A stretch of 64,000 bases of DNA, from NCBI RefSeq assembly GCF_000385135.1, contig NZ_ARQM01000010.1, positions 930,001 through 994,000 on the forward strand, in the 5' to 3' direction. Below, in pieces: positions 32,301 to 46,663 of this stretch. The position numbers and the translations under genes were made by a program. Position 1 is the first letter of the stretch. Every line of letters begins with the position of its first letter. The stretch comes from Promicromonospora sukumoe 327MFSha3.1. Lineage in GTDB: Bacteria > Actinomycetota > Actinomycetes > Actinomycetales > Cellulomonadaceae. Below the pieces are notes generated by a model. It worked only from the letters and a program-made list of their open reading frames with translations, searched no databases and was not told the origin of the DNA.

Positions 32301-35039
32301 CTAGCCCCGGACCGTCAGCCGCACGGTCGTCCAGTCGCGGGTGCCCTCGCCGTCCGTCGCGATCAGCCGGGCGGTGTAGCGCCCCGGCTCCTCGTAGACG
32401 TGACTGACGCTCGCGCCGTCCGCGGTGGTGCCGTCACCGAGGTCCCACTCGTAGGAGACGATCTCCCGCCCCTCGGGCGCCACGGCGGACCCGGACAGGT
32501 CGACCGAGCCGCCCGCCCGGACGCCCCCGCGCCCGGCCTCGGCCGTCACGACCGGGGCCGTGGCGTCGGCGACGCCGCGCCCGTGGAAGACGAGCCAGTC
32601 GAGACCGAGGTTCGCGCCGTCGGCCGGCTCCCGCTTGCTCTTGACCACGAGGTACAGCGTGGTCTCGCCCTGCTGGTCCGGCAGGTCGATCGTCGGCGAG
32701 ACGACCTGCCCGGCGGCCGTGGCGGCGTCGACCTTGACCTGGCCGAGCTTGCGCCCGGTCGGGCTGCCGGTCCGCACCTCGACGGTCGCGCCGGCCGCGC
32801 CGCGGACGGCGCCGACCGTCAGGGCGTCGATGCCGCGCAGGTCGACCGGCCCGAACGCGATCCAGTCGCCGTGGTCGGCGTCGGTCACGAGCCGCCCGCC
32901 CCGGGCGTCGGCGCCGTCCGCCACGGTGACGCCGGAGCTGTCGGCGTAGAACTCGGCCTCCTTGTCGCGTACCTGTAGGTGGATGACGTCCTGGCCGGCC
33001 AGCGCGGGCACGCCGCCGGATCCGAGGTCCTCGTAGCCGGCACCGAGCACGGGGTAGACGTTCTGCCCGACGCCGTGGTCCGCCGGGTCGAGGAACACCG
33101 ACCCGGAGCAGCCGGTGTAGTTGTCCAGCGGGTGCGCGTGGGTGTCGTGGCCCAGCTGGGTGTTCACCGTGACCAGCTCGCAGTCGATCGTGCCGGCCTC
33201 GGTGGAGCCGTCCTCGGGGTCGTCGACGTCGACGGCGTAGTCGACCGTGTCGCCCAGCTCGGCGAAGCCGCCGTGGAACGGAGCCCCGAAGGAGACGTCC
33301 GGCCGGGTGTTGCCGGCCGTGATCTTCTGCACGGAGACGCCGGTGAACCCCTCGCTGTCCGTGACCGTCAGGCGGGCGCTGAACTGCCCTCGCTCGGTGT
33401 AGGTGTGGGTGGGGTTCGGCTCGGTCGAGTCGACGGTGCCGTCGTTCTCGAAGTCCCACTCGTAGGTGATGTCGAGCCCGTCAGGGCTCTCGCTGGTGCC
33501 GCCGTCGAAGGCGACGGTCAGCGGCTCCGGCCCGGAGTCGACGTCGGCGGTGAACCGCGAGATCGGCCGGCGGCCGTCGGCCGCGTAGTCGATGCGGTAG
33601 ATGCCCGCGTCGGTGTTGGTGCTCCCGCGGCCGGCGCCCCGGCCGAGGCCGAAGTCGATGATGTAGAGCGAGCCGTCGGGGCCGAACTCGGCCTCGAACG
33701 GGGCGACGAACGTCTCCCCCTCCAGGAACGGGTCGATCGAGGCGAGCTCACCCGTGGTCTCGTCGAGCGAGAGCACCTTGTAGAAGTTGCGGGCGTACTC
33801 GGACACGAACCAGTGCCCGTCAAAGCTCTCCGGGAACTTGGTCTTGACGTCCAGCTCCGGGTCGAACCGGTAGACCGGGCCGCCCATCGGGGCCGCGCCG
33901 CCGGAGCCCAGCTCCGGGAACTCCTCGGAGACCCCGTAGCCGTACCAGACGAGCGGCTCCTGCGACGGCGGGAGCTCGCGCAGGCCCGTGTTGTTGGGGG
34001 ACTCGTTGACCGGGTTGGCGCAGTCGAACGGCTCGCCCGAGGCGCCCGTGGCGAAGTCGTAGTCGATGTACGGCTGGTTGTCGGCGTGGCAGTACGGCCA
34101 GCCGTGGTTGCCCGGCTCCGTCATCCGGATGAACTCGACCTGGCCCTCGGGGCCGCGCAGCGGGTCGGCCACGCGGGCGTCGGGCCCGTAGTCCCCGATC
34201 AGCACCGCCCCGGTGCCGGGGTCGACGGTGATCCGGAACGGGTTGCGGAAGCCCATGCCGTAGATCTCCGGGCGGGTGCCCTCGGTGCCCGGCGCGAACA
34301 GGTTGCCGTCCGGGACCGTGTACGTGCCGTCGTCCTGCGGGGTGATGCGCAGCACCTTGCCGCGCAGGTCGTTCGTGTTCGCGGACGTGCCCTGCGCGTC
34401 CCAGGCCCGGCGGCCCTCCCGCTCGTCGATCGGGGTGTAGCCCGCCTGGTCGAACGGGTCGGAGTTGTCGCCGGTCGCGACGTAGAGGTCGCCGTCGGGA
34501 CCCATCGCGAGCGAGCCCGCCATGTGCGAGTTGGCGCGGCCCTCGCCCCGCCAGATGGTGAAGTCCAGCAGCCGCTTCTCGGAGGCCGGGTCGATGGTGT
34601 CGTCCGGTCCCATCGTGAACCGCGAGAGGTTCATCTTCGCGACGTCGGGGTCGCTCCAGAGCAGGTACAGCCACCCGTTCTCGGCGAAGTCGGGGTCCAG
34701 GGTCAGACCCAGCAGGCCGTCGGACTGCTGCAGCAGGTCCAGGGAGTAGTCGAGGTCCAGGGCCGTGGTCTGGCGCAGCGTCTCCTGGTCCAGCACCACC
34801 ACCTGGCCGGTGCGCTGGATGTAGACGACGCGGCCGTCGTCGGCCACGTCGAGCTCGAACGGGTCGGCGAGACCCTCCGTGACCAGCGGGACCTTGTCGA
34901 ACGTGGCGGCCTCGCCGTGGTCGGAGCCCGGATGGGCGGTGGCGGCTGTGGTGGCGGGGACCAGGGCCCCGAGCGCGACGACCAGACCGGTCGTCGCACC
35001 CAGGAACCGACGGCGTGCCCGGCGGTGCGGTGCGGACAT
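32301..35039 (-). CDS. Secreted PQQ-type sugar dehydrogenase-like protein with PKD and CBM domains
   Basis: The 912-residue protein has an N-terminal signal (RRRFLGATTG, ending TAATAHPG). A glucose/sorbosone-dehydrogenase beta-propeller follows (about 48-490; LLGLTLDPDF, MGFRNPFRI, GNHGWPYC). Then come a PKD domain (about 491-575), a Cys-containing linker domain (575-690), a carbohydrate-binding CBM6-like domain (about 700-815) and a second PKD (about 826-912). It would oxidise a sugar outside the cell, with the CBM holding it on polysaccharide. It is the third gene of the secreted operon, 40 bp after the isomerase. GAGGGAG lies before ATG 35039. Confidence 0.85.
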   Translation of the reverse strand: MSAPHRRARRRFLGATTGLVVALGALVPATTAATAHPGSDHGEAATFDKVPLVTEGLADPFELDVADDGRVVYIQRTGQVVVLDQETLRQTTALDLDYSLDLLQQSDGLLGLTLDPDFAENGWLYLLWSDPDVAKMNLSRFTMGPDDTIDPASEKRLLDFTIWRGEGRANSHMAGSLAMGPDGDLYVATGDNSDPFDQAGYTPIDEREGRRAWDAQGTSANTNDLRGKVLRITPQDDGTYTVPDGNLFAPGTEGTRPEIYGMGFRNPFRITVDPGTGAVLIGDYGPDARVADPLRGPEGQVEFIRMTEPGNHGWPYCHADNQPYIDYDFATGASGEPFDCANPVNESPNNTGLRELPPSQEPLVWYGYGVSEEFPELGSGGAAPMGGPVYRFDPELDVKTKFPESFDGHWFVSEYARNFYKVLSLDETTGELASIDPFLEGETFVAPFEAEFGPDGSLYIIDFGLGRGAGRGSTNTDAGIYRIDYAADGRRPISRFTADVDSGPEPLTVAFDGGTSESPDGLDITYEWDFENDGTVDSTEPNPTHTYTERGQFSARLTVTDSEGFTGVSVQKITAGNTRPDVSFGAPFHGGFAELGDTVDYAVDVDDPEDGSTEAGTIDCELVTVNTQLGHDTHAHPLDNYTGCSGSVFLDPADHGVGQNVYPVLGAGYEDLGSGGVPALAGQDVIHLQVRDKEAEFYADSSGVTVADGADARGGRLVTDADHGDWIAFGPVDLRGIDALTVGAVRGAAGATVEVRTGSPTGRKLGQVKVDAATAAGQVVSPTIDLPDQQGETTLYLVVKSKREPADGANLGLDWLVFHGRGVADATAPVVTAEAGRGGVRAGGSVDLSGSAVAPEGREIVSYEWDLGDGTTADGASVSHVYEEPGRYTARLIATDGEGTRDWTTVRLTVRG

Positions 35040-35079
35040 CAACACTCCCTCGTGCTGGGTCGGATGGTGCGGGCAGGGC

Positions 35080-36276
35080 TCAGTAGCGCAGCTCGGCGAG
35101 GTAGCCGAGGCTGGTGCACGCGGACGTCACGCCGTCGGGCGACGGCTGGTCGTTCTCCGTGAAGCCGTAGCGGACGCCGGCGAGCGGCGCGGTGGCGAAG
35201 ATCTCGGCGAAGTCGATGGTGCCCGCGCCGACGTCGGCGAACGAGCCGTCCTCGGCGATGTCCTTGAGGTGCAGCAGCTCGAACCGGCCCGGGTAGCGCG
35301 CGAACAGGTCCGTGGCGGCGGTCTCCGTGCTGGCCGCCCAGTACACGTCGAGCTCCATGGTGACGAACGCGGGGTTCGTCTCCCGGACCAGCACGTCGTA
35401 GCCCGTGACGCCGTCCTCCTCGGTCTCGAACTCGTACCCGTGGTTGTGGTACGCGACCCGGATGCCCTCCGCGCTCAGCGCCTCGCCCGCCTCGTTGAGG
35501 ATCGCCGCCGTGCGGGAGTAGTCCGCGAGCGTCCACGAGCCGGAGCCCGAGATACGCACGTACTTCGCGCCGATCGCGTGCGCCTCGGCGGCGACCAGGT
35601 CGACGTCGTTCTGCAGGTTCGACAGGCTCACGCCGAGCGACGGCACCTCCAGCCCCGCCTCGTCCGTGAGCGGCGCCAGCTCCGCGGCCGTGTAGCCGTA
35701 GAAGTTGCCGGCGGCGCCCGACGGCTCGATGTTCTGGAAGCCGCACTCCGCGAGCGCGCCCAGGGTCCCCTCGGCGTCCGTGGGCATGGTCGCGCGGACC
35801 GTGTAGCCCACCAGGCCGATCCTGGACAGGTCGACCGACCGCTCGCCCGTCACCGGGTGCGGCCTGCCCACCTCCGAGGCGGCCGCGGCGCGCAGGATGT
35901 CCCGGCGCTCGCGGGCGGTGAGGACCCGCTCGCGCACGAGGTCCTTGGTCACCGAGGTGACCGTCCGGACGAACCTGCCGTGCGTCGCGAACGGCGCGTC
36001 GGCCATGATCTCGTCCATCACGGTGCAGCCGGCCCGGGTCTCGTGGTTGGTCACGCCGGAGTCGGCGCCGGCGCCGAACCAGACCGTGGCGTCGCTGGTG
36101 TAGCCGTACGCGCACGCGGTGGTTCCGGCGCCCCCGCCGGGCCCGCCCGCCGGCCCCGCCGCCGCCGCGCACGGCGCCAGGACCGGCAGGGTCAGCGTGG
36201 CGGCCACGGCGGCGGCGAGCCACGGCTTGGCGGTGCGCCGCAGGGCGCGGGTGGTGGTGCTGGCAGTTCGTCGCAT
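35080..36276 (-). CDS. Secreted xylose-isomerase-like TIM-barrel sugar isomerase/epimerase or lyase
   Basis: The 398-residue protein has a signal peptide (TAKPWLAAAVAATLTLPVLA, ending CAAAAGPA). About 100 residues of unfamiliar sequence with two Cys follow, then an AP_endonuc_2 TIM barrel (about 150-398). The barrel metal residues are recognisable in NIEPSG, VAYHNHGYEFE, MELDVYW and LLHLKDIAEDG. Most proteins of this family are cytoplasmic, so export is unusual. Relatives next to 3-keto-hydrolase genes act on 3-ketoglycosides. It is the middle gene of the operon, 18 bp after the upstream stop, with a GGAGGGG ribosome site. Confidence 0.82.
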   Translation of the reverse strand: MRRTASTTTRALRRTAKPWLAAAVAATLTLPVLAPCAAAAGPAGGPGGGAGTTACAYGYTSDATVWFGAGADSGVTNHETRAGCTVMDEIMADAPFATHGRFVRTVTSVTKDLVRERVLTARERRDILRAAAASEVGRPHPVTGERSVDLSRIGLVGYTVRATMPTDAEGTLGALAECGFQNIEPSGAAGNFYGYTAAELAPLTDEAGLEVPSLGVSLSNLQNDVDLVAAEAHAIGAKYVRISGSGSWTLADYSRTAAILNEAGEALSAEGIRVAYHNHGYEFETEEDGVTGYDVLVRETNPAFVTMELDVYWAASTETAATDLFARYPGRFELLHLKDIAEDGSFADVGAGTIDFAEIFATAPLAGVRYGFTENDQPSPDGVTSACTSLGYLAELRY

Positions 36277-36294: not shown

Positions 36295-39200
36295 TCAGCG
36301 GACGGTCAGGTCGACCGTCGTCGTGCTCCGTCCGTACACCAGGTCGCCGAGGTACTGCACGGTGACCGGGTGCTTTCCCTTCCCCAGGCCGGACGTCGGG
36401 ACGACGAGCCGGGCCGGGCCGCGGCCCAGCGTGGCCTTGACCGACGTGTCGCCGACCGTCACCCGGACGGTCCCCGTCGGGGCCGGCTTACCCTTGGCGC
36501 CGGGCACGCGGACCTCGGCTCGCACCTCCTGGCCCGCCTTCACCCTCGGCGGGGCGAGCCGCGCCGAGACCTTGGACGCGAGTGCCTGCGAGGTCTCCTC
36601 CCCGGTCAGACGTTCGATCCAGACGTTGCGGAACCGCGGGTTCAGGCCTGCGTCGCCGTGGTCCTGCAGCTTGATGTGGCCCGGCGTCGGCCCCTCGGCC
36701 TTCCCGTTGCCCGTCTTGCCGTCGATCGGAACGTCGTCGTGCACGAGCTGCCCGTTCCACCACAGGGACAGGCGCGCGTCCTCGGTCTTGGTCCCGTCCG
36801 GGGCGAACCGGGCGGCACGGAACTGGATGTCGTACGTCTGCCACGTGCCCATCTCGGTCGCGGCGTTCACGTCCGGGGCCTTCTTCAGGTAGATCGAGCC
36901 GGCGTCGTTGTTCTTCGGCGGGTCGATGCCGAAGGACTCCAGCACCTGCACCTCGTAGCGCTCCTGGATGTAGACGCCGCTGTTGCCGCGGGCCTGGCCG
37001 GTGACGTCGTCGGCGTGCTGGGGCTGGTACCACTCGGCGTGCATCCGGAAGTCGCCGAACTTCTCCTTGGTGCGGATGTCGCCGCCGAACGACTCCATCG
37101 AGCCGTCCGCGACCGGCCACGTCGCGGGCCCGCCGCTCGCCTTCTCGAACGCGTCGAGGTCGCCGCCGTCGAACAGGGTGATGCGCTCGCTGGGCGTGAC
37201 GGTGAGGCTGTCGAGGTTCACGTGCCCCAGGTCGTCGTCGTCATGGACGTACGCGATCGTGTTGGCGCCCTCGCGCAGCTCGACCGTCTCGGTCTGCGTC
37301 TGCCAGTTGGACCAGCTCACGGTGCTGTCGAGCCAGACCTGCTTCTGCTTGACACCGTTGACGTACAGGCTCATCGACCGCGGCGTCGGGCTGGGGTCGG
37401 AGTTCTGGCCGTTCGCGTAGCGCAGCGCCAGGTCGTGCGGGCCCGCCTCGCCGGCCTCGACGGCGAACGTGGTGCGCGCGCCCGGCTCCCAGTTGCGGTC
37501 CACGAACCCGGCGCCCGAGTACCCGGCGTGGTTGGTGTTCCAGCCCGCGCCGCCGGCGATGTCGGCGGCCTCGGCCTCGTAGACGGGCGGCGGCGTCGAA
37601 CCGTCGGGCAGGCGGTTCATCGTGTACCAGGCCTCGGTGCTCCACAGCTCCGCGCCGCCCTCGGCCGCGAACGGCCGCGGGGAGTGCACGTTGACGACCC
37701 GGCCGGGCTTCAGCCCGTCGATCATCAGGGTCACCGTCTTGCGGTCGTCCGACAGCGTGGCCGAGGTGACCTCCAGGTCCTCCTCGTCGACCTTGGGGCC
37801 GCCGTACTGCGGCGTCGAGACGTAGCGCCACTGCGCCGCCTCGTACTTCCCGGCCAGGTCCTCGGCGGTCTCGGCCGACAGCGGCAGCGTGTACTCGATC
37901 TCGAAGCCGCCCTCGATCGCGCGCATCTCGAGCATGTCGAACGCCCGGTTCTCGTCGAAGGTGAGCTTCTGCAGGCCGTAGCCGAGCTTGCCGGCCTGGC
38001 CCCAGTTGCCCGACCAGCCGATGCCGCCCACGTAGATCGACCCGTCCGGGCCGACGCTCGTCCGGCTCACGCCCGACTCCAGGCCCTGCGTCATGCGGAA
38101 GACGGCGCCTTGCTCCTGGCCTGCGACGTCCTCCAGGTAGACGCGCTGCAGGCCGCCGTAGGTCACGTCCCCGATCGCCATCTGGCCCTCGAACACACCC
38201 TCGGTGAGGATCACGGGGTTGCTCGGGGAGTTGGAGATCTCACCGTGCGGCATCCACACCACGGGCTCGGTCACCGGCTGGTCGTCGTACGGGCCGTCCG
38301 GGTTCGTGTAGTGGTTGTAGAACGCGCCCTCCTGCACGCGCACCAGCTTCGACGTCGGCACGTGCATGCCCTGGTTGTCGGTGACGTACATGCCGCCGTC
38401 GGTCCCGAAGCCGAGGCCGTTCGGGGTGCGCAGGCCGCCCGCGAGGTACTCGACCTCGCCGGTGTCCTCGTCGATCTTCAGCACCGAGCCGCGGTTCTCG
38501 ACGAGCTGCGGGTCGCGCGTCGCGCCGCCGGGCACCATCGCGATGCCGGTGGAGACGTAGAAGTAGCCGTCCTCGTACAGCAGGCCGAACGCGAACTCGT
38601 GGTAGTTGCCGCCGAACGGCCAGGTCGCGACCTCGCGGTACTCGTCGGTGACCTCGTCGCCGTCGGTGTCCACGAGCTCCGTCAGGCCGTGCTTCTCGGA
38701 GACGTAGATGCGGCCGTCGACCACCTTGAGGCCCATCGGCTCCTCGAGCTCCTCGGCGATCTTGGTGTACGTGACGTCGTCGGCGCCGCCGTCGCCCGTC
38801 ACGTTCTCGACCAGGTACACCTCGCCGAGCACCGTCTCGCGGTCGCCGCCCCACGTGGCGATGGCCATGCGCCCGTCCGGCAGCCAGTCCATGCCCGTGA
38901 CCTGCGGCTCGAAGCCGTCCGGGCGCAGGTTCGTCAGCGTGTAGTCGGGGTGCACCTCGGTCAGCGGCAGGCCGTCGCCCGGCGCCTCGTCGACGCCCTC
39001 GCAGACCTTGCGCCCCGGGGAGGTGACGCGGGTGACCTCGGCGTCGGTGCTCAGCACCGAGTTCGGCACCAGCGCGAAGCCGGACGCGCCCGGCGGGCGC
39101 CACTCCAGCGTGAGCTGCTGGCCGAAGTCGCCGTCGAAGTGGTCCATGCGCAGCGCGTGGTACCCGGCCTCCAGCTCGACCGACCCGTCCTTCGGCGTCG

Positions 39201-39606
39201 CCCCGTGCTTGCCCGGGTGGTCGACGACGAGGGTCTCGTCGAGCAGCAGGCGCGCTCCGTCGTCGCTGGTGACCCGGAAGTCGTAGCTGCCGGCGTCCGG
39301 CACGTTCAGGAAGCCGGTCACCTCGGTGACGAACCGGTCGGTGAGGCCGAAGTCGTCCGCCGTGCGCCAGTCGATCGTCGGCTTCAGCTCGTCGATGTTC
39401 GGCGTCTGGCCCGGCTTCAGCGTGCAGTAGTCCTCCAGCGGGACCTGGACGTCGAAGACGCGCATCGTGACGCCGGGCTCCTGGGGCCGGGTCGGGTCGG
39501 TGGCCGCCTGGGCCGAGGCTTGCGCCGCGGCCGGGAGCACCGTGAACGGCAGCACGAGCACGCCGAGCATCGCGGCGAGGGTGCGGTGGGTCGATCTACG
39601 TTCCAT
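36295..39606 (-). CDS. Secreted multidomain 3-keto-disaccharide hydrolase (PA14, propeller, CBM, DUF1080)
   Basis: The 1103-residue protein has a signal peptide (1-34), a PA14 domain (about 45-175; FRVTSDDGARLLLDE), a beta-propeller of the membrane-bound-dehydrogenase type (about 220-550), a CBM6/35-like domain (about 672-804), a DUF1080 3-keto-disaccharide hydrolase domain (about 804-1002) and a C-terminal Ig-like domain. The DUF1080 domain shows TLFDGGDLDAFE, GDFRMHAEW, GNSGVYIQERYEVQVLE and GTWQTYDIQF. It would cleave oxidised (3-keto) glycosides outside the cell. It is the first gene of the operon, led by the exact 29-bp operator copy at 39719-39747. Confidence 0.87.
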   Translation of the reverse strand: MERRSTHRTLAAMLGVLVLPFTVLPAAAQASAQAATDPTRPQEPGVTMRVFDVQVPLEDYCTLKPGQTPNIDELKPTIDWRTADDFGLTDRFVTEVTGFLNVPDAGSYDFRVTSDDGARLLLDETLVVDHPGKHGATPKDGSVELEAGYHALRMDHFDGDFGQQLTLEWRPPGASGFALVPNSVLSTDAEVTRVTSPGRKVCEGVDEAPGDGLPLTEVHPDYTLTNLRPDGFEPQVTGMDWLPDGRMAIATWGGDRETVLGEVYLVENVTGDGGADDVTYTKIAEELEEPMGLKVVDGRIYVSEKHGLTELVDTDGDEVTDEYREVATWPFGGNYHEFAFGLLYEDGYFYVSTGIAMVPGGATRDPQLVENRGSVLKIDEDTGEVEYLAGGLRTPNGLGFGTDGGMYVTDNQGMHVPTSKLVRVQEGAFYNHYTNPDGPYDDQPVTEPVVWMPHGEISNSPSNPVILTEGVFEGQMAIGDVTYGGLQRVYLEDVAGQEQGAVFRMTQGLESGVSRTSVGPDGSIYVGGIGWSGNWGQAGKLGYGLQKLTFDENRAFDMLEMRAIEGGFEIEYTLPLSAETAEDLAGKYEAAQWRYVSTPQYGGPKVDEEDLEVTSATLSDDRKTVTLMIDGLKPGRVVNVHSPRPFAAEGGAELWSTEAWYTMNRLPDGSTPPPVYEAEAADIAGGAGWNTNHAGYSGAGFVDRNWEPGARTTFAVEAGEAGPHDLALRYANGQNSDPSPTPRSMSLYVNGVKQKQVWLDSTVSWSNWQTQTETVELREGANTIAYVHDDDDLGHVNLDSLTVTPSERITLFDGGDLDAFEKASGGPATWPVADGSMESFGGDIRTKEKFGDFRMHAEWYQPQHADDVTGQARGNSGVYIQERYEVQVLESFGIDPPKNNDAGSIYLKKAPDVNAATEMGTWQTYDIQFRAARFAPDGTKTEDARLSLWWNGQLVHDDVPIDGKTGNGKAEGPTPGHIKLQDHGDAGLNPRFRNVWIERLTGEETSQALASKVSARLAPPRVKAGQEVRAEVRVPGAKGKPAPTGTVRVTVGDTSVKATLGRGPARLVVPTSGLGKGKHPVTVQYLGDLVYGRSTTTVDLTVR

Positions 39607-39718
39607 GGGCCTTGCCTCTCCATCGAGGACCTTGCCTGCCGGGGACCGTGCCCGCCGAGGGCGGCGTCGTTGCGCCGACGGCTGGGTACGCCACGTCACT
39701 ATGCGGTCAGGGGTGACC

Positions 39719-39747
39719 CCGGACAACGAGTTGCCACTTGTTGCCCC
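39719..39747 (-). promoter_or_regulatory. LacI-regulon operator copy A with promoter of the secreted operon
   Basis: This 29-bp segment, read on the minus strand, is identical to 41309-41337. Its core GGCAACAAGTGGCAACTCG leads into the -35 hexamer TTGTCC (39726-39721), and CATAGT follows 17 nt later as a -10 box. The core is an imperfect 20-bp palindrome (CAAC...GTTG, 16 of 20 positions). It lies 113 bp upstream of the first secreted-operon start. The operator covers the -35 box, so binding should block transcription. Confidence 0.78.
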
Positions 39748-39766
39748 TGGGGCAGTACCCGACGGG

Positions 39767-40807
39767 TCAGGGGCGGCGGGACGTGGAACCGCGCTCGACG
39801 AGCTTGGCGGGCAGCAGCGCCGGTGCCGACAGGCCGGAGGACGTCGCGACCGACGGCCCCGCCGACGGGGAGCGGAGCTGGTTCAGCAGGCGCTGGACGG
39901 CGAACGTGCCGAAGTGGCGCAGGGGAGAGGCGACCGTCGTCAGCGGCGGGGTGCAGAAGTCGGAGCCGAAGATGTTGTCGAACCCGACCACGCTCAGGTC
40001 GCGGGGCACCTCGATCCCCAGCCGCGTCAGCCCGCGCATCGTGCCGATCGCGACGAGGTCGTTGTAGGCGACGGTCGCGGTTGCGGAGTGCGTGGTCAGC
40101 GCCTGGGCGGCCGAGAGCCCGCCCGCGAGCGTGGGCGCGAACGGGCCGAGCCGGCGCGCTCGCAGCCCCAGCTCCTGGGTCGCCTCACGGAAGGCGCGCC
40201 AGCGCATGCCGTCCGCCCACGACGCCTCGGGCCCGGCCAGGTACGTCAGCCGGGAGTGCCCCAGGCCCGCCAGGTGCTCGACGGCGCGCCGCATCCCCTG
40301 GGCGTTGTCGGTCACGACGCTCGGGACGTCCGCCACCACGCGGTTCATCACGACGGTCGGCCGCTGCTTGGCGACCGCGCGGATCGCCGCGTCCGAGAGC
40401 CGCGAGGTGGCCAGCACGACGCCCTCCACCAGGGGCAGGGTGCGCTCCAGCGCCCGGCGCTCGGCCCCGCTGGACTCGTGCGCGTCCACCACCAGCAGCG
40501 TGTAGCCCGCGTCGATGGCGGTCTTCTCGGCGCTGCGGATGATCTCGAAGAAGAACGGGTTGGTCAGGTCGGCCACGACGATCGCGAGCAGCGCCGTCCG
40601 GCCGTCGGGCATCGCGCGCCCGATCGGGCTCGTCCGGTAGCCGAGCTCGTGGGCGACGCGACGGATCCGGTCCGCCGTGTCAGCGTTGACACGACCCGGC
40701 CGGGAGAACGCCCGTGAGACTGTCGAGGGCGCGACGCCGGCGGCCTTGGCGACGTCGTAGATGGTCGGTCTGGTCCGAGAGCTCCCTGTTTCGGCAGTTT
40801 CGCCCAT
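39767..40807 (-). CDS. LacI family transcriptional regulator
   Basis: The 346-residue protein has the LacI helix-turn-helix at its N-terminus (TIYDVAKAAGVAPSTVSRAF), the hinge helix (ADRIRRVAHELGY) and a periplasmic-binding-like sugar domain (DLTNPFFFEIIRSAEK, VVMNRVV, VVGFDNIFGSDF). It should bind a sugar-type effector. It sits between the secreted operon and the LarE-like and importer genes. The shared operator in their promoters makes it their probable repressor. ATG 40807 lies 8 nt after a TACGCT -10 box, suggesting a leaderless message. Confidence 0.93.
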   Translation of the reverse strand: MGETAETGSSRTRPTIYDVAKAAGVAPSTVSRAFSRPGRVNADTADRIRRVAHELGYRTSPIGRAMPDGRTALLAIVVADLTNPFFFEIIRSAEKTAIDAGYTLLVVDAHESSGAERRALERTLPLVEGVVLATSRLSDAAIRAVAKQRPTVVMNRVVADVPSVVTDNAQGMRRAVEHLAGLGHSRLTYLAGPEASWADGMRWRAFREATQELGLRARRLGPFAPTLAGGLSAAQALTTHSATATVAYNDLVAIGTMRGLTRLGIEVPRDLSVVGFDNIFGSDFCTPPLTTVASPLRHFGTFAVQRLLNQLRSPSAGPSVATSSGLSAPALLPAKLVERGSTSRRP

Positions 40808-40815
40808 GCGCGGGG

Positions 40816-40939
40816 AGCGTACGGCGCGCGGCCCGCCGACGGCAACCAATTGCCGCAGACCCGCGCGGGCGTGGCAGGTCCTTGCCTGCCCGGCAAGAGG
40901 TGGCAACACCTTGACTGCCCTGGTGCCGCACCCTCGAAT
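40816..40939. promoter_or_regulatory. Divergent promoters and operators between LacI and the LarE-like gene
   Basis: On the minus strand TTGCCG (40845-40840), 18 nt, then TACGCT (40821-40816) is the LacI promoter. Its -35 box lies inside the inverted repeat CGGCAA-CCAA-TTGCCG (40840-40855). On the plus strand TTGACT (40911-40916), 17 nt, then TCGAAT (40934-40939) drives the LarE-like gene. The diverged operator copy C (40892-40916) matches copies A and B at 19 of 25 positions and starts the same 19 bp before the -35 box. A further repeat CTTGCC-N5-GGCAAG lies at 40881-40897. The layout predicts autoregulation. Confidence 0.68.
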
Positions 40940-40945
40940 GACCGC

Positions 40946-41263
40946 ATGACCATGCGCGCCGCATCAGGGACGAGCCCGCCACCCGGGGACGACGACGAGC
41001 CCGGCGACCAGCCGGCGGACGAGGCCGTCCAGGTCGAGGCCGCCGAGAGCGAGCTGCGCCGCCTCGGCCTCGAGGAGATCCGCGTGCGCCACCACGGCGA
41101 CCTCGCCCGGCTCGAGGCCCCGCACCGCGACCTCGCGACCATGACGTCGGAGCCCCTGCGCGGCGAGGTCCTGCGGGCCGTGCGGTCCGCGGGCTTCCGC
41201 TCCGTCGCCGTCGACCTGGAGGCCGTCGCGGACGACGCCGGAACCGACCCGCACGACGGCTGA
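40946..41263 (+). CDS. Free-standing LarE C-terminal-like domain protein
   Basis: The 105-residue protein has an acidic, Pro-rich start. A segment then follows the C-terminus of LarE sulfur transferases closely: LRRLGLEEIRVRHHGDLARLE, quoted only to its RVRHHGDLARLE core, then VLRAVRSAGFRSVAVDLE. The whole PP-loop ATP-binding domain and the catalytic Cys region of LarE are absent. It cannot make the nickel-pincer precursor by itself. The RVRHHGD motif may have been reused for binding. The ATG lies 6 nt after TCGAAT, so the message is probably leaderless. A 9-bp hairpin follows the stop. Confidence 0.72.
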   Translation: MTMRAASGTSPPPGDDDEPGDQPADEAVQVEAAESELRRLGLEEIRVRHHGDLARLEAPHRDLATMTSEPLRGEVLRAVRSAGFRSVAVDLEAVADDAGTDPHDG

Positions 41264-41270
41264 CCCGGTC

Positions 41271-41294
41271 CCGGTGGCAACCGCGTGCCACCGG
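41271..41294 (+). terminator. Terminator after the LarE-like gene
   Basis: CCGGTGGCA-ACCGCG-TGCCACCGG is a perfect 9-bp stem with a 6-nt loop, 8 bp after the stop codon. It separates the LarE-like gene from the importer promoter 15 bp further on. Its GTGGCA half also resembles the operator core, so a regulator may touch it too. Confidence 0.6.
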
Positions 41295-41308
41295 GGGCTC
41301 GCGGTGGC

Positions 41309-41358
41309 GGGGCAACAAGTGGCAACTCGTTGTCCGGCCCTGGTGGGGCTCATAGTGT
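41309..41358 (+). promoter_or_regulatory. LacI-regulon operator copy B with promoter of the importer operon
   Basis: Bases 41309-41337 repeat copy A exactly over 29 bp. The -35 hexamer TTGTCC (41330-41335), a 17-nt spacer and TAGTGT (41353-41358) form the promoter, with the operator overlapping the -35 box. The transcript would start near 41364 and carry a leader of about 155 nt before the permease start. Confidence 0.78.
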
Positions 41359-41369
41359 CCCCCGTGAAA

Positions 41370-41394
41370 AGCGGCTCCACAGGCCGGAGCCGCT
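41370..41394 (+). promoter_or_regulatory. Leader hairpin of the importer operon
   Basis: AGCGGCTCC-N7-GGAGCCGCT forms a perfect 9-bp stem just after the predicted transcript start. A 10-codon frame beginning at GTG 41364 and ending with TGA at 41394-41396 runs through it. The GTG lies 5 nt after the -10 box. It may be an RNA-stabilising 5' hairpin or part of a small leader control. No known riboswitch is recognisable. Confidence 0.4.
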
Positions 41395-41519
41395 GACCTG
41401 CTCTACCGACCGGCACCTCCGGGACGACGACGTCCGGTGTGCCCTGACCCGCTGCCCCACGGTGTCGACGTCGACCCCGTGCGACGAAACGGAATGAGCG
41501 AACTATGGAGGATCACGCC

Positions 41520-42398
41520 ATGGTGACCACCCAGGAGGCCCGTCCCACGACGCCGTCCTCGCCCCGGTCCCGGCCGCCGGCCCAGCCCTCCGGCGGGCCG
41601 ACGGCGGGGAGCCGGGCGCTCGCGCTGCTCGCGGACTCGTGGCGGCCGGCGGCCGTGCTGCTCGCGCTGTTCGCCCTCTGGTGGTTCGTGGCCTGGCGCG
41701 AGCTGGTCCCCGCCTACCTCGTGCCCTCCCCGGGCGCGGTCGCGGAGACCATGGCGGCCGAGTGGCCGATGCTCCTGGAGCACACGTGGGTCACCACGCT
41801 GGAGACGATCGTCGGGTTCGTGCTCGCGGCCGTGATCGGCGTGGCGGCCGCCGTGCTGCTGGTCTACTCCAGGACCGCCGAGAAGTCCCTCTACCCGCTC
41901 ATCCTCTTCGCGCAGGTCATCCCCAAGATCGCGATCGCCCCGATCCTGGTCGTCTGGTTCGGGTTCGGCATGACGCCGAAGATCGTCCTGGCCGTGCTCA
42001 TCGCCTTCTTCCCGGTCGTCGTCTCGGCCGTCGCGGGGCTGCGCTCGGTCGACCCCGAGCTGCTGGAGATGTCCGCGACGATGGGCGCCTCCCGGTGGAA
42101 GACCTTCCGCAAGATCCGGTTCCCCGGGGCCCTGCCGCAGCTCATGTCCGGCCTCAAGGTCGCGGTCACGCTGGCGGTCGTGGGCGCCGTCGTCGGCGAG
42201 TTCGTGGGCGCCGACCGCGGCCTCGGGTACGTGCTGCTGCTCGCCAGCGGCAACCTCGACGCACCGCTGCTGTTCGCCGACCTGATCCTCATGTCGCTCA
42301 TCGGCGTGGTCCTGTTCGTGCTGGTCGAGGTGCTCGAACGGCTCCTCATCCCGTGGCACGCCTCGCGGCGCGGCAACCTCGCGCTCGCGACCGTCTGA
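41520..42398 (+). CDS. ABC importer permease, SsuC/TauC type
   Basis: The 292-residue permease has about six transmembrane segments and the cytoplasmic EAA loop (EMSATMGASRWKTFRKIRFPGALPQ, given here only as its core GASRWKTFRKIRFPGA). It is typical of nitrate, sulfonate, taurine or thiamin-precursor importers. ATG 41520 is the start, because GGAGG at 41507-41511 lies 8 nt before it. The ATG at 41505 would leave that site inside the gene. It is the first gene of the four-gene importer operon under operator copy B. Confidence 0.9.
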   Translation: MVTTQEARPTTPSSPRSRPPAQPSGGPTAGSRALALLADSWRPAAVLLALFALWWFVAWRELVPAYLVPSPGAVAETMAAEWPMLLEHTWVTTLETIVGFVLAAVIGVAAAVLLVYSRTAEKSLYPLILFAQVIPKIAIAPILVVWFGFGMTPKIVLAVLIAFFPVVVSAVAGLRSVDPELLEMSATMGASRWKTFRKIRFPGALPQLMSGLKVAVTLAVVGAVVGEFVGADRGLGYVLLLASGNLDAPLLFADLILMSLIGVVLFVLVEVLERLLIPWHASRRGNLALATV

Positions 42399-42461
42399 CC
42401 GGACCGGCTCTCTTCCGCGTTCCCGCCGTCACCGTGGCGGCACGACCAGAAAGGCTCTCCC

Positions 42462-43505
42462 ATGCGTGGTGCAACGAAGCAGAGGCGTGGCGGCAGGATC
42501 ACGATGTCGCTGGGCGTGGCGGGCGTCGCGCTCGCGACGGTCGCGGCCTGCGGGCAGACCGCCGGTGGCGGGTTCGGCGAGCAGAACGCCGAGGGCCTGA
42601 GCGAGGTCACCGTGACCCTCAACTGGGTGCCGTACGGCGAGCACGCGCCGTTCTACTACGGCGTGGCGGAGGGCATCTTCGAGGACGAGGGGATCGACCT
42701 CACGATCCAGCCGGGCAACGGGTCCGGCAACACCGTGCAGCAGGTCGCGCAGCGCAACACCGACTTCGGGTGGGCGGACACCCCGCCGCTGGCGAACGGC
42801 ATCAGCTCCGGCATGCCCGTGCGCAGCGTCGGCGTCTTCCTGCAGACCGGCCCCAGCTCCGTCGAGTTCTTCGACGACCAGGGCATCACCGAGCCCGCCG
42901 ACCTCGTGGGCAAGACCGTCGGCGGCACGCCCGGCGACGCCATGTACGGCACGTTCCCAGCGTGGCTGGAGATCAACGGCGTGAACCCGGACGACGTGAC
43001 CGTGGTCAACGTGGACGCCGCCGGCAAGATCGCCGCGCTGATCGAGGGCAAGGTCGACGCCATCCAGGGCTTCTACCACGACCAGGCGGCGACCATCGAG
43101 AACCAGACCGGCAAGGAGGTCTCGGCCCTGCCGTTCTCGGACTTCGGCATGAACATGCTGGGCACCGGCCTGCTGGCGCACGAGGCGACGATCGACGGCG
43201 ACCCCGAGCTGGTCCAGGCGATGGTGCGGGCGACGTCGAAGTCGTTCCTCGCGGCGTCCGAGGACCCGGACGCCGCCGTCGCCGCGATGGCCGCCGACGC
43301 CGAGCAGGCGCCCGACGAGGAGGTGCTCGCGGCGCAGCTCGAGGCGACGATCGGCCTGCTCAACCTCGAGGAGGCCCCCGCGCCAGGCGTGAACACCGAG
43401 CAGCAGTGGACCGACACGCTCACGTTCCTCACCGAGAACACGGAGTTCGAGGGCGAGCCGACGCCGGACGCGTACTGGGACGCGTCCTTCGGGGAGGGCA
43501 TGTGA
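42462..43505 (+). CDS. NMT1/THI5-like substrate-binding lipoprotein
   Basis: The 347-residue protein has lipobox VAAC (Cys30) and an NMT1/THI5-type binding domain. It starts TLNWVPYGEHAPFYYGVAEG and continues GIDLTIQPGNGSGNT and DFGWADTPPL. Relatives bind pyrimidine thiamin precursors, sulfonates, riboflavin-like compounds or aromatic acids. No thiamin riboswitch is present upstream, so the ligand need not be a thiamin precursor. Its stop overlaps the ATPase GTG start by four bases. Confidence 0.9.
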   Translation: MRGATKQRRGGRITMSLGVAGVALATVAACGQTAGGGFGEQNAEGLSEVTVTLNWVPYGEHAPFYYGVAEGIFEDEGIDLTIQPGNGSGNTVQQVAQRNTDFGWADTPPLANGISSGMPVRSVGVFLQTGPSSVEFFDDQGITEPADLVGKTVGGTPGDAMYGTFPAWLEINGVNPDDVTVVNVDAAGKIAALIEGKVDAIQGFYHDQAATIENQTGKEVSALPFSDFGMNMLGTGLLAHEATIDGDPELVQAMVRATSKSFLAASEDPDAAVAAMAADAEQAPDEEVLAAQLEATIGLLNLEEAPAPGVNTEQQWTDTLTFLTENTEFEGEPTPDAYWDASFGEGM

Positions 43506-44332
43506 CCGCCACGACCGGGCCCGCGACCGAGCACAGCGCGTCAGCGCGGGCCGCCGACGTCGAACCGATCATCGAGGTCTCGCACCTCACCCGGCGCTTC
43601 ACCTCCAAGCGCTCGGAGACCGTGGCGCTCGACGACGTCTCGCTGGCCGTGCTGCCGGGGGAGTTCGTCACGATCGCGGGGCCGTCGGGCTGCGGCAAGT
43701 CGACGCTGCTCAAGATCATCGCCGGGCTGACCCTCGCCACCGAGGGCGACGTGCGCCTGTACGGGCGGGCGGTCACCGGGCCGCAGCGCGAGATCGGGTT
43801 CGCCTTCCAGCGCTCGGCCCTGCTCGAGTGGCGGGGCGTGCGCAAGAACATCCTGCTCCAGGCCGAGATGCGCGGCATGGACCGGCGCCGCGCCGAGGAG
43901 CGCGCCGACCACCTGATCGAGCTCACCGGCCTGACCGGGTTCGAGAAGGCCCTGCCGCACGAGCTCTCCGGCGGCATGCAGCAGCGCGTCGCGCTGTGCC
44001 GCGCGCTGCTGCACGAGCCCCGCGTGCTGCTGATGGACGAGCCGTTCGGCGCGCTCGACGCCCTGACCCGCGAGCAGATGAACATCGAGATGAACCGCAT
44101 CTGGCGCGAGACCGGCACCACCGTGGTGCTGGTGACCCACTCCGTGCCGGAGGCGGTGTACCTGGGCAGCCGGATCGTCGTCATGAGCCCGCGGCCCGGG
44201 CGCATCGTGGAGACCCTCGAACCGGGGCTGCCGGAGCGCCGCGAGTACGGGCCGACGCTGACCGACCCCCGGTTCACGGCGGCGGCCGAGCGGCTACGCG
44301 ACCTGCTCGGCGCCAGCCATGCGCCCGAGTGA
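43502..44332 (+). CDS. ABC importer ATPase, SsuB/TauB type
   Basis: The 276-residue ATPase has Walker A GPSGCGKST, Q-loop FQRSALLEW, signature LSGGMQQRV, Walker B LLMDEPFGALD and the switch His in VTHSVPEAVY. This matches SsuB/TauB/NrtD proteins. It powers the permease encoded two genes upstream. The GTG start at 43502 overlaps the binding-protein stop (GTGA). The 3' end overlaps the oxidoreductase gene by 14 bp, so the four genes form one tightly coupled operon. Confidence 0.92.
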   Translation: MTATTGPATEHSASARAADVEPIIEVSHLTRRFTSKRSETVALDDVSLAVLPGEFVTIAGPSGCGKSTLLKIIAGLTLATEGDVRLYGRAVTGPQREIGFAFQRSALLEWRGVRKNILLQAEMRGMDRRRAEERADHLIELTGLTGFEKALPHELSGGMQQRVALCRALLHEPRVLLMDEPFGALDALTREQMNIEMNRIWRETGTTVVLVTHSVPEAVYLGSRIVVMSPRPGRIVETLEPGLPERREYGPTLTDPRFTAAAERLRDLLGASHAPE

Positions 44333-45353
44333 GGAGGCTCCGCTCGGGGTGGGGATCATCGGGATGGGCGGCATCGGCGCGATGCACGCCCGTGCCCTCG
44401 CTGAGCTCGGGGGGCGGGCGCGGCTCGTCGCGTACAGCGGGCGGGCGCGCCCGCCGGCCGGTCCGGGCAAGCCGGACCTGCCGGCGGTACGCCTCGCACC
44501 CGGCGAGGTGATCGCCCACCCCGACGTCGACGTCGTGGCGATCTGCACCCCGAGCGGCACCCACGCGGCGCTCGCGCTGGCGGCGCTGGAGGCCGGCCGG
44601 CACGTCGTCGTCGAGAAGCCGCTCGCGCTCGACGTCGACGACGCGCTGCGGGTCGCGCGCGCCGCGCACGAGCGCGGGCGATCCGTCTCGATGATCGCCC
44701 AGCGCCGCCTGGAGGCCGAGCACGTCGCGCTCAAGCGGGCCCTCGACGACGGCGCGCTGGGGGAGCTGCGCCTCGCGATGACGCACGTGCACTGGCACCG
44801 GGACGACGACTACTACCGCGCGGCGGGCTGGCGCACCGCGGCCGACCAGGGCGGCGGGTCCCTGATGAACCAGGGGGTGCACAACGTGGACCTGCTGCGC
44901 TGGCTGTGCGGCCCGGTCGAGTCGGTGACGGCGCAGTCCGGCACCCTCGCGCACGCGATCGAGGCCGAGGACACGACCGTGGCGACCCTCCGGTTCGCCT
45001 CGGGTGCGCTCGGCGTGGTGACCACGACGACGGCGACGCCGCCCGGGTTCCCCGCGACGATCTCGCTGTTCGGTTCCCGGGGCTCGGTCGAGCTCGGGCA
45101 GGGGGAGGTGCTGCGCTGGGACGTCCCGGGGGTGCCTGCACCGGCGGCGGGCGGGCCGGCGAGCGGCGCGGCCGAGCCGCTCGCGATCGGGCACGCGGGG
45201 CACCTGGCGCAGTGGGCGGGCATCGTCGAGGCGCTGGAGACGTCGACGCCGGTGCCCGTCGGCATCGACGACGCCGTCGAGACCGTGCGGCTGCTGTGCG
45301 CGATCGAGAAGGCGGCGGCGTCGGGGGCGGTGGTGCGGCCGACAGCCCTCTGA
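44319..45353 (+). CDS. Gfo/Idh/MocA family oxidoreductase
   Basis: The 344-residue protein has an N-terminal Rossmann fold (GVGIIGMGGIGAMHARAL), the family's EKPLALD motif near residue 100 and a C-terminal sheet domain with GGSLMNQGVHNVDLLRWL. That region supplies the catalytic Lys-Asp-His set. These NAD(P) enzymes oxidise or reduce sugar hydroxyls, often at C3. No signal peptide is present, so it acts in the cytoplasm. It ends the importer operon, which suggests the imported compound is a sugar or sugar derivative. Confidence 0.9.
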   Translation: MRPSEEAPLGVGIIGMGGIGAMHARALAELGGRARLVAYSGRARPPAGPGKPDLPAVRLAPGEVIAHPDVDVVAICTPSGTHAALALAALEAGRHVVVEKPLALDVDDALRVARAAHERGRSVSMIAQRRLEAEHVALKRALDDGALGELRLAMTHVHWHRDDDYYRAAGWRTAADQGGGSLMNQGVHNVDLLRWLCGPVESVTAQSGTLAHAIEAEDTTVATLRFASGALGVVTTTTATPPGFPATISLFGSRGSVELGQGEVLRWDVPGVPAPAAGGPASGAAEPLAIGHAGHLAQWAGIVEALETSTPVPVGIDDAVETVRLLCAIEKAAASGAVVRPTAL

Positions 45354-45434
45354 TCAGGGATTATGCTGTCCCTGCCGATTCTGAGCCCTGCTCACGAACC
45401 TACGGTCCACCAGGTCTCGACGAGGGGGAGCCCG

Positions 45435-46292
45435 ATGCCTGTTGCGCACGAAGAGGACACGGCGCGCCCGGAGCCCGCCACCGCGGACGAGGTCGCGTTG
45501 CCCGGGGGCGATCCCCAGGTGCGGCGCGACCGGCGCCTGGGGAACCGGATCATCGGCGGGCTGGTCGGGGCCGTGCTGATCGCCGCGGTCGTGGGCGTGC
45601 TGGGCCTCCGCGGAGGGGACGAGCTCGACCCGGTGTTCGAACCGACCGACGTCCCGACGGCCCTGCCCGTGGGCGAGGCCGCGGAGGGTGCCGGTGCGAC
45701 CGAGGACGTCGCCGGTGTCCCCGTCGGCTTCCCGCAGAGCGTCGACGGCGCGGTCTCGGCCATGATGACCTACGGCAACGCGGCCGACGCGGCGCTGTTC
45801 CGGACGCCGCAGGAGCGGGCGCAGATCGCCGAGCGGATCTTCACCGACGAGGGGCACGCCGCGAGCGGCCTGACCGACCAGGCGGCCGCGGAGGCGCAGG
45901 ACCGGCTGGGGGCGGACGCGCTCACCGGGTGCGCCTACGAGTTCGGTGCCTACAAGGTCGTCTCGGTGGGGAGCTACGGCGCGGAGCGGGTGCCCACCGA
46001 GGTGGTCGTCTCCACCTGGGCGCCGTGCCTGAGCGGCGACGGCGAGGCGCAGGACGCCTCCGACGTCGACATCCGCTGGACGCACCAGGCCGGCACCCTG
46101 CGCTGGGACGGCAGGGACTGGCGGGTCGAGTCGATCGTCACCCCCGACGGCCGGGCTCCGGAACCCGCCGACCCGGACGACGTCGCGATCACGTTCGAGG
46201 AGCGGGCCCGGCTCCTCGGGGCGGGCTGGACGCTGCCGGCCGACGCCACCGAGGAGATCCCGCCGGGCTTCTGGGCGAGCCGCATGCACTGA
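45435..46292 (+). CDS. Single-pass membrane protein, unknown function
   Basis: The 285-residue protein has a cytoplasmic, charged N-terminus of about 40 residues and one transmembrane helix (IIGGLVGAVLIAAVVGVLGL). The outer domain of about 220 residues has two Cys near its middle (TGCAYEF, WAPCLSG) and ends EEIPPGFWASRMH. The layout resembles anchored proteins found in many actinobacteria, but I do not recognise a family. ATG 45435 follows GGGGGAG. It is separated from the oxidoreductase by 81 bp and ends at a terminator hairpin. Confidence 0.68.
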   Translation: MPVAHEEDTARPEPATADEVALPGGDPQVRRDRRLGNRIIGGLVGAVLIAAVVGVLGLRGGDELDPVFEPTDVPTALPVGEAAEGAGATEDVAGVPVGFPQSVDGAVSAMMTYGNAADAALFRTPQERAQIAERIFTDEGHAASGLTDQAAAEAQDRLGADALTGCAYEFGAYKVVSVGSYGAERVPTEVVVSTWAPCLSGDGEAQDASDVDIRWTHQAGTLRWDGRDWRVESIVTPDGRAPEPADPDDVAITFEERARLLGAGWTLPADATEEIPPGFWASRMH

Positions 46293-46299
46293 CCGGTGC

Positions 46300-46321
46300 G
46301 GCCCGGGCCGGAGCCCGGGCC
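46300..46321. terminator. Terminator between convergent genes
   Basis: GGCCCGGGC-CGGA-GCCCGGGCC is a perfect 9-bp stem with a 4-nt loop. It starts 7 bp after the membrane protein stop and ends 7 bp before the convergent small gene. Confidence 0.72.
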
Positions 46322-46328
46322 AGGCTGC

Positions 46329-46574
46329 TCAGCGCACAGTCGGCCCCTCGACGGACACCGGTCCGTGGCCGCCCGCGTGCTTGATCTCCAGGTTGAGGGT
46401 GCTGCGCGACGTCGGGATCACGACGACCTGGGCCTCGTCACCGCTGGTGTCGATGGCGCGCACGTGCAGGTGCCCGTCCTTGAGCTTGAGCGCGAACTGG
46501 TCGGCCCCGGCGACGAAGCGCACCTCGCTGTCGTCGGTGATCACGGTGGGGCCAGTGGGCAGGGTCTTCGGCAT
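46329..46574 (-). CDS. Small conserved-looking hypothetical protein, 81 residues
   Basis: The frame encodes a beta-rich protein (EVRFVAGADQFALKLKDG, HLHVRAIDTSGDEAQVVV, TLNLEIKH) with strand-like alternation and no signal peptide. The ATG has no strong ribosome site. The regular codon usage and its fit between two terminator-like regions favour a real gene. I recognise no family. Confidence 0.55.
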   Translation of the reverse strand: MPKTLPTGPTVITDDSEVRFVAGADQFALKLKDGHLHVRAIDTSGDEAQVVVIPTSRSTLNLEIKHAGGHGPVSVEGPTVR

Positions 46575-46632
46575 GGGTACAGCATGCCCTGGCGCGGCCG
46601 CCCGGCACGACCATCCACCGTCTGATCAAACG

Positions 46633-46663
46633 CTTACCGCCCTGTAAGTTTTGTGTGTACGCT
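46633..46663 (+). promoter_or_regulatory. Promoter with internal dyad upstream of the acetyltransferase-GH3 operon
   Basis: TTACCG (46634-46639), an 18-nt spacer and TACGCT (46658-46663) form a plausible promoter. The inverted repeat CTTAC-CGCCCT-GTAAG (46633-46648) covers the -35 box and part of the spacer, an operator position. It predicts a leader of about 75 nt before the GTG at 46745. Confidence 0.45.

What the first reader, a model, noticed from the sequence alone, without database searches (positions are those of the whole stretch)
39719..41358. One operator word in three promoters defines an unreported-looking LacI regulon
An exact 29-bp repeat lies in the promoter of the secreted operon (39719-39747, minus strand) and of the importer operon (41309-41337). 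A third copy with 19 of 25 matches lies before the LarE-like gene (40892-40916). In all three the GGCAA word starts exactly 19 bp upstream of the -35 hexamer (TTGTCC, TTGTCC, TTGACT). The LacI gene between them has its own -35 box inside a GGCAA/TTGCC dyad. Identical spacing at three promoters is hard to explain by chance and ties four transcription units to one regulator.
Basis: partly seen in the sequence, partly recalled or inferred. Interest (0 to 1): 0.85.

Follow-up and report, generated by a model that had tools for sequence, protein, structure and literature searches.

The report
Uronate-utilisation LacI regulon, rewired
Three promoters in a soil actinobacterium share a switch sequence that very probably belongs to the neighbouring LacI-type repressor; in related bacteria the same switch sits among sugar-acid (glucuronate) genes, and here it controls an altered gene set that includes a left-over piece of a nickel-cofactor enzyme.

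Summary
Observation confirmed. GGCAANNRGTGGCAAC occurs three times in the 6.25-Mb genome, only at these promoters, and three times at the same locus in 9 of 13 Promicromonospora genomes. The operator is a palindrome (GGCAACNNNTTGNC) whose right arm is also the -35 box, plus a conserved third half-site 10 bp upstream; the "identical spacing" is therefore partly the same fact counted twice. Missed was the function: orthologous loci are hexuronate loci (UxaC in 54 of 80), with either nickel-pincer Lar genes (32) or mannonate dehydratase (25), never both. Promicromonospora has a secreted 3-keto-hydrolase operon, an NMT1-type importer and a solo LarE C-terminal domain under purifying selection (dN/dS 0.10), in a genome where LarA, LarC and intact LarE were not found. 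Binding, inducer and substrate are untested. New member of a known kind, with unusual details.

The parts
39719..39747 (-). 29-bp operator word, promoter of the secreted-enzyme operon (24-bp motif 39722-39745)
   Evidence: same site in 9 of 13 genus genomes
39698..39726 (-). predicted core promoter: -35 TTGTCC (39726-39721), 17 bp, -10 CATAGT (39703-39698); the -35 is the right arm of the operator
   Evidence: read from the sequence; ATAGTG block kept in aligned orthologues
40892..40915 (+). operator copy before the solo LarE C-terminal-domain gene
40911..40939 (+). predicted core promoter: -35 TTGACT (40911-40916), 17 bp, -10 TCGAAT (40934-40939)
   Evidence: read from the sequence; kept in orthologues
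41309..41337 (+). 29-bp operator word, promoter of the importer operon (24-bp motif 41311-41334)
   Evidence: same site in 9 of 13 genus genomes
41330..41358 (+). predicted core promoter: -35 TTGTCC (41330-41335), 17 bp, -10 TAGTGT (41353-41358)
   Evidence: read from the sequence; kept in orthologues
40841..40854 (-). dyad GGCAATTGGTTGCC in the lacI promoter, probable autoregulatory operator (core palindrome without the third half-site)
39767..40807 (-). LacI-family regulator, 346 aa (HTH + periplasmic-binding-like domain), proposed binder of the word
   Evidence: Pfam LacI, Peripla_BP_3, Peripla_BP_1 over cut-off; orthologues at the word
36295..39606 (-). first gene of the secreted operon: PA14, DUF7133, CBM35, 3-keto-disaccharide hydrolase and Ig-like domains
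   Evidence: Pfam; absent from the operon in 1 of the 9 genomes, G009
35080..36276 (-). xylose-isomerase-like TIM barrel with signal-like N-terminus
   Evidence: Pfam AP_endonuc_2; export judged by eye
32301..35045 (-). glucose/sorbosone-dehydrogenase-like protein with PKD and CBM6 domains
   Evidence: Pfam
40946..41263 (+). solo LarE C-terminal domain, 105 aa
41505..42398 (+). ABC importer permease
   Evidence: Pfam BPD_transp_1
42462..43505 (+). substrate-binding protein, NMT1/THI5-like
   Evidence: Pfam NMT1
43502..44332 (+). ABC importer ATPase
   Evidence: Pfam ABC_tran
44319..45353 (+). Gfo/Idh/MocA oxidoreductase
   Evidence: Pfam

Best explanation
The word is the operator of the adjacent LacI-family protein, which works as a repressor. 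A dimer binds the palindrome GGCAAC-NNN-TTGNC, whose right arm doubles as the -35 box, so bound repressor blocks RNA polymerase; the third half-site GGCAA, one helical turn upstream and in the same orientation as the left arm, probably strengthens binding (second dimer or extended contact). Binding of a uronate-derived inducer releases it. The protein is the Promicromonospora orthologue of a regulator of hexuronate (glucuronate) utilisation that is widespread in Actinomycetota. In most lineages sampled its loci hold uxaC-uxuB, GH2 glycosidase and a mannonate-disposal module: either mannonate dehydratase, or a nickel-pincer LarA-type epimerase with LarB/C/E, gluconokinase and 6-phosphogluconate dehydrogenase (D-mannonate to D-gluconate to pentose phosphates). 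In Promicromonospora the same regulator now controls a secreted 3-keto-hydrolase/oxidoreductase operon, an NMT1-type importer with a Gfo/Idh enzyme, itself, and a small protein that is all that remains of LarE. Shown by sequence: motif, conservation, linkage to the orthologous regulator, gene content, loss of Lar genes. Inferred: binding, repression, inducer, and that the Promicromonospora operons serve an oxidative (3-keto) route to glucuronosides.
For: Three words in the whole genome, all here; 3 in each of 9 of 13 genus genomes at the same locus. 30 of 30 best family-level LacI loci have the motif at <=4 mismatches. Of 80 named LacI-orthologue loci (the best 80 of 151 found) 37, 69, 75 and 79 have a site at <=0, 1, 2, 3 mismatches; reversed motif 0, 0, 0, 8; mean of 10 dinucleotide shuffles 0, 0, 0.1, 1.9. 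131 collapsed sites at <=1 mismatch: 0 inside ORFs of the tested families, 113 within 350 bp of the extrapolated start of a tested gene. The half-site pattern emerges when only the core is fixed (125 unique core sites). Hexuronate content within 8 kb: UxaC 54, UxuB-like 53, GH2 32, LarE 24, LarB 23, ManD 22, LarA 20, LarC 13 of 80. Lar type 32, dehydratase type 25, both 0; gluconokinase 11 of 11 and Gnd 6 of 6 in Lar loci. Cellulosimicrobium and Oerskovia loci hold both the Promicromonospora operons and uxaC/uxuB, which joins the two regulon types. The mannonate to gluconate reaction is known for two LarA homologues (PMC7583248, passages).
Against: No binding or expression data. In the order-wide scan the bare word is hardly above chance by genome count: 30 of 396 genomes against 21 of 396 for the reversed pattern (my count of rows); only 12 of the 30 (own genome included) have a LacI of >=46% identity in the region held. 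The motif was shaped on some of the same lineages it was tested on. Promicromonospora has its uxaC on another contig without a word, so in the window's genus the link to uronates rests on orthology alone. Several name-giving matches are below NCBIfam cut-offs: UxuB-like 247 of 603, gluconokinase 344 of 648, LarA-like 152 of 500 bits. Mutual exclusion is not phylogenetically independent: 4 changes on the LacI tree. Only 2 of 131 sites were assigned to a LarE start and none to LarA or LarC.
Confidence: 0.72

Rival explanations
1. The LacI protein binds the word, but in Promicromonospora its inducer is no longer a uronate: the regulon has been re-purposed for neutral 3-keto-glycosides or another substrate of the NMT1-type importer.
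For: In Promicromonospora uxaC lies elsewhere without a word; the enzymes at the locus are 3-keto-disaccharide hydrolase, GSDH, TIM-barrel isomerase and Gfo/Idh, which are not uronate-specific.
Against: LacI is 79-80% identical to the best Cellulosimicrobium orthologues, whose loci keep uxaC, uxuB and in some cases uxuA beside the same operons; a CBM35 domain, a family with uronic-acid-binding members (recalled), is in the secreted hydrolase (28.8 bits, cut-off 28).
Confidence: 0.2
2. Another DNA-binding protein (for instance an activator that likes 10-bp direct repeats next to -35) binds the word, and LacI is only a neighbour.
For: Direct repeats with a one-turn period just upstream of -35 are typical of activators (recalled); the first two half-sites are tandem.
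Against: The conserved core is a palindrome with the half-site spacing of PurR-type operators (recalled) and reappears without the tandem half-site before lacI itself; the word follows orthologues of this LacI across families. LacI-family CytR is known to bind direct as well as inverted repeats (PMC3454398, passages).
Confidence: 0.06
3. The word is a promoter element read by an alternative sigma factor and not an operator.
For: It overlaps the -35 region in all three promoters.
Against: A housekeeping-type -10 lies 17 bp after TTGNCN; a genome-wide sigma regulon should not be confined to one locus.
Confidence: 0.02

Closest known systems
LacI-family regulators of glucuronate/galacturonate use (ExuR, KdgR, UxaR, UxuR as listed by Ravcheev et al. 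2014, PMC4052901; passages seen)
   Same: LacI family, hexuronate catabolic genes as targets, palindromic operator, autoregulation likely
   Different: Actinobacterial group (only 7% of the regulons in that study were from Actinobacteria); composite operator with a third half-site; nickel-pincer genes among the linked genes; in Promicromonospora a secreted 3-keto-type operon instead of uxaC-uxuB. Sequence relationship to those regulators was not tested.
CytR (LacI family; PMC3454398, passages seen)
   Same: LacI-family protein whose operators include direct repeats of a CAAC-type half-site
   Different: CytR sites act between CRP sites and vary in spacing; here a fixed palindrome with one fixed extra half-site overlaps the -35
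D-gluconate 2-epimerase GntE (LarA homologues; PMC7583248 and PMC11770544, passages seen)
   Same: LarA-family protein linked to mannonate, with gluconate as the likely product
   Different: The actinobacterial protein scores 152 bits against a cut-off of 500 for NCBIfam NF052594 (putative hexonate epimerase), so it is at most a divergent relative
LarE (PDB 5udq and others)
   Same: The 105-aa window protein matches the LarE C-terminal domain in sequence profile and predicted fold
   Different: No PP-loop ATPase domain and no sulfur-donor cysteine region; genomes tested lack LarA and LarC

Membership tests
LacI-family repressor | LacI-type HTH plus periplasmic-binding-like domain | tested here: met
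   PF00356, PF13377, PF00532 all over cut-off; solved homologues across residues 15-315
LacI-family repressor | palindromic operator linked to the regulator gene and shared with orthologues | tested here: met
LacI-family repressor | binds the operator and is released by a ligand | not testable with these tools
   needs protein
hexuronate regulon | hexuronate catabolic genes at the orthologous loci | tested here: met
   UxaC 54 of 80, UxuB-like 53 of 80 within 8 kb; UxaC representative over NCBIfam cut-off
hexuronate regulon | hexuronate genes under the word in the window's own genome | tested here: not met
   own UxaC at G000:C11:345865-347211 has no word; only three words in the genome
LarE (sacrificial sulfur transferase) | PP-loop ATPase domain | tested here: not met
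   window gene covers TIGR00268 189-253 only, below cut-off; no PP-loop in its open frame
LarE (sacrificial sulfur transferase) | partners LarA, LarB, LarC in the genome | tested here: not met
   no LarA or LarC found in G000; LarB not searched in the whole genome
NPN-dependent hexonate epimerase (in relatives) | NCBIfam NF052594 over cut-off | tested here: not met
   152 bits against 500 for the one representative scanned; Pfam Lar_N over cut-off

The most novel reading that the evidence does not exclude
A LacI regulator of uronate use with a three-half-site operator has kept hold, in Promicromonospora, Cellulosimicrobium, Oerskovia and some others, of a gene whose product lost its enzymatic (PP-loop) half step by step while its C-terminal domain stayed under strong purifying selection: an enzyme domain turned into a small stand-alone protein with a new job, possibly sensing or handling a uronate metabolite, in cells without the nickel-pincer cofactor; the same regulon has gained an extracellular 3-keto route for glucuronosides.
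Probability: 0.3. Interest if true: 0.78.

Novelty: new member of a known kind. Interest (0 to 1): 0.6.

Why it matters
It gives a testable operator and function for a LacI group found in many actinobacterial families, and ties nickel-pincer enzymes to glucuronate use as an alternative to mannonate dehydratase. The solo LarE domain, with decaying intermediates still visible in sister genera, is a clear case in which one domain of a cofactor enzyme outlives the pathway. The composite operator asks a simple biochemical question about LacI-family binding. My searches found no paper describing this regulon, but the library lacks most subscription journals and the regulon database RegPrecise was not available.

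Tried and rejected
Riboswitch or other known RNA at 39000-47000: no Rfam match at E <= 1. Order-wide use of the bare 16-bp word as a marker: rejected as too close to chance (30 against 21 of 396 genomes); the extended motif near LacI orthologues was used instead. A LacI group labelled by me as paralogues (L140-L146) did not form one clade (4 changes): L140 is identical to L236 and L142-L143 fall among the orthologues; only L144-L146, with the own genome's second LacI (48% identity), stand apart. Sigma-factor or activator readings: see rivals. Literature on three-half-site LacI operators gave only CytR and CcpA as leads, on 3-keto glucuronides nothing relevant. Rows dropped: two of the 21 named loci flagged as lacking a PP-loop (L207 broken frame or fragment; L209 a full LarE with SGGID, missed by my text test) were left out of the solo-domain count; L166 was left out of the leader alignment because its leader is shortened. 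My printed label 'of 15' is wrong: the motif has 17 fixed positions, one of them R. No random-position control was run for the gene-start association.

Full report
The sequence feature. The 29-bp word is exact and inverted at 39719-39747 and 41309-41337; the third copy at 40892-40916 has 19 of 25 matches. The pattern GGCAANNRGTGGCAAC has three hits in the whole genome, all at this locus, with none for the reversed control. The host genus is Promicromonospora. Nine of 13 genomes of the genus have exactly three hits, in the same arrangement (in one of them, G004, spread over two contigs). Spacers between word and -10 vary while the word, the -35 and the -10 are kept. In one of the nine, G009, the 3-keto-hydrolase gene itself is missing and the word stands before the TIM-barrel gene.

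The four genus genomes without the exact word do not contradict this. G005 and G006 have at best LacI proteins of 48% and 44% identity and G007 none at the threshold used. G012 is apparently P. umidemergens (its UxaC coordinates, agree with locus L180), which has a LacI of 66% identity with looser sites (1-2 mismatches) around TRAP, ManD, UxuB-like and UxaC genes: another version of the same regulon within the genus.

Test by orthologues. I searched 121 genomes of the family with the LacI protein (67 with a match at E <= 1e-60) and scanned the 30 best loci: all 30 hold the motif GGCAANNNGTGGCAACNNNTTGNC at <= 4 mismatches, against 0.07 per 4 kb in mononucleotide shuffles. I then took the 80 best of 151 named relatives from one genome per species. 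Sites at <= 0, 1, 2, 3 mismatches to GGCAANNNRTGGCAACNNNTTGNC occur in 37, 69, 75 and 79 of 80 loci; the reversed motif gives 0, 0, 0 and 8; ten dinucleotide shuffles average 0, 0, 0.1 and 1.9. Of 131 sites at <= 1 mismatch none lies inside ORFs of the tested families, and 113 lie within 350 bp of the extrapolated start of a tested gene: GH2 23, UxaC 19, LacI 16, the 3-keto-hydrolase gene 13, LarE-like 11, TIM barrel 11, UxuB-like 7, permease 6, ManD 4, LarE 2, Gnd 1. The motif was partly learned on the same lineages, so this is a strong but not fully independent test.

In the reverse direction, an order-wide scan for the bare word is weak evidence: 30 of 396 genomes against 21 of 396 for the reversed pattern (rows counted by me). 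Twelve of the 30 have a LacI of at least 46% identity in the region held (for two genomes only 1.8-3 kb were held). If the third half-site is required, 8 genomes other than the window's remain; 7 have the LacI in the region, and the eighth (G156) has its LacI on another contig with the word there before a predicted Abhydrolase_10 protein, a possible distant target.

Operator anatomy. Fixing only the core GGCAACNNNTTGNC and looking at 125 unique sites, a further GGCAA emerges at -10 to -6 (frequencies 0.61 to 0.82) and an AAT-like -10 signal at +36 to +38. So the operator is a palindrome whose right arm TTGNC is the -35 box, plus one extra half-site one turn upstream. The lacI promoter has the palindrome alone. 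This suggests repression by blocking RNA polymerase; the role of the extra half-site is open.

Function. Within 8 kb of the 80 LacI genes tblastn finds UxaC in 54, UxuB-like in 53, GH2 in 32, LarE in 24, LarB in 23, ManD in 22, LarA in 20 and LarC in 13. Representatives of UxaC, UxuA, ManD, LarC, LarE and Gnd pass NCBIfam cut-offs; UxuB-like, gluconokinase and LarA-like representatives do not. GH2 was identified by Pfam only; calling it beta-glucuronidase is inference. Thirty-two loci have LarA or full LarE, 25 have ManD or UxuA, none has both, 23 have neither; gluconokinase (11 loci) and Gnd (6) occur only with Lar genes. Fisher's p is 8.5e-8 but the loci are related: the label needs 4 changes on a quick LacI tree, at least 3 forced. 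LarA homologues that turn D-mannonate into D-gluconate are known (PMC7583248 and PMC11770544, passages). The simplest reading is that Lar loci send mannonate through gluconate to the pentose phosphate pathway, and the others through mannonate dehydratase.

The window's branch. Cellulosimicrobium and Oerskovia share the 3-keto-hydrolase gene, importer and Gfo/Idh gene with Promicromonospora and also keep uxaC, uxuB-like and in some loci uxuA at the edges. Promicromonospora has its UxaC elsewhere, without a word. What the secreted PA14/DUF7133/CBM35/3-keto-hydrolase protein, the GSDH-like protein and the NMT1-type importer act on is not known; an oxidative, 3-keto route to glucuronosides is my inference from these domains and from the regulator's relatives.

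The LarE remnant. The window gene 40946-41263 encodes only the C-terminal domain. Among the named loci I count 19 genuine cases without a working-looking PP-loop (21 flagged, L207 and L209 set aside): 15 short proteins (Promicromonospora, C. cellulans group, Actinotalea sp. K2, Cryobacterium, Rathayibacter) and 4 longer ones (C. arenosum, C. terreum, Cellulosimicrobium sp. Marseille-Q4280, Oerskovia flava) whose N-terminal half still resembles LarE but with altered PP-loop letters. In 15 of the 19 a site at <= 1 mismatch lies upstream of the gene; in the Actinotalea, Cryobacterium and Rathayibacter cases it does not (3 to 5 mismatches). Across 8 Promicromonospora genomes the domain has a median dN/dS of 0.10 over 28 pairs and about 64 codons, against 0.13 for LacI and 0.25 for the binding protein and the 3-keto-hydrolase gene. 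LarA was not found in 7 of 7 Promicromonospora and 2 of 2 Cellulosimicrobium genomes tested, LarC in 11 of 11 genomes of these and allied groups, with 4 of 4 Lar-bearing comparison genomes positive; full LarE was searched in the own genome only, LarB in none as a whole. The model of the solo domain is confident in its core (50 of 105 residues at pLDDT >= 90, mean 77.5) and matches the LarE C-terminal domain; the alignment used contained full LarE rows, so this match is partly built in.

Judgement. The regulator belongs to a known kind, LacI-family control of uronate use, in a group that I did not find described. What is unusual is the composite operator, the two alternative mannonate modules, and a cofactor-enzyme domain that survives alone under uronate control.

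Noticed in passing
41359-41504: Leader of the importer operon: two conserved hairpins in 6 Promicromonospora sequences, 3 of 52 predicted pairs with compensatory changes; no Rfam match. In P. citrea (L166) the leader is cut short after the first hairpin.
   Followed up: partly
41273-41292: Inverted repeat GGTGGCA-accgcg-TGCCACC just after the solo LarE-domain gene, terminator-like and also resembling a weak operator.
   Followed up: no
40873-40889: Outward-facing TTGCC/GGCAA repeat directly upstream of the middle operator (CTTGCCTGCCCGGCAAG), partly kept in relatives.
   Followed up: no
L117:9759-9850: In G156 a complete three-half-site word stands before a predicted Abhydrolase_10 protein, far from the LacI gene, so the regulon may reach distant genes.
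   Followed up: partly
L130:5439-8045: In Actinotalea sp. K2 a GH3-family gene carries a site at 1 mismatch near its start.
   Followed up: no
L145 (G000:C1:69000-88900): The own genome has a second LacI of 48% identity next to a TRAP transporter gene, with no site at <=2 mismatches.
   Followed up: partly
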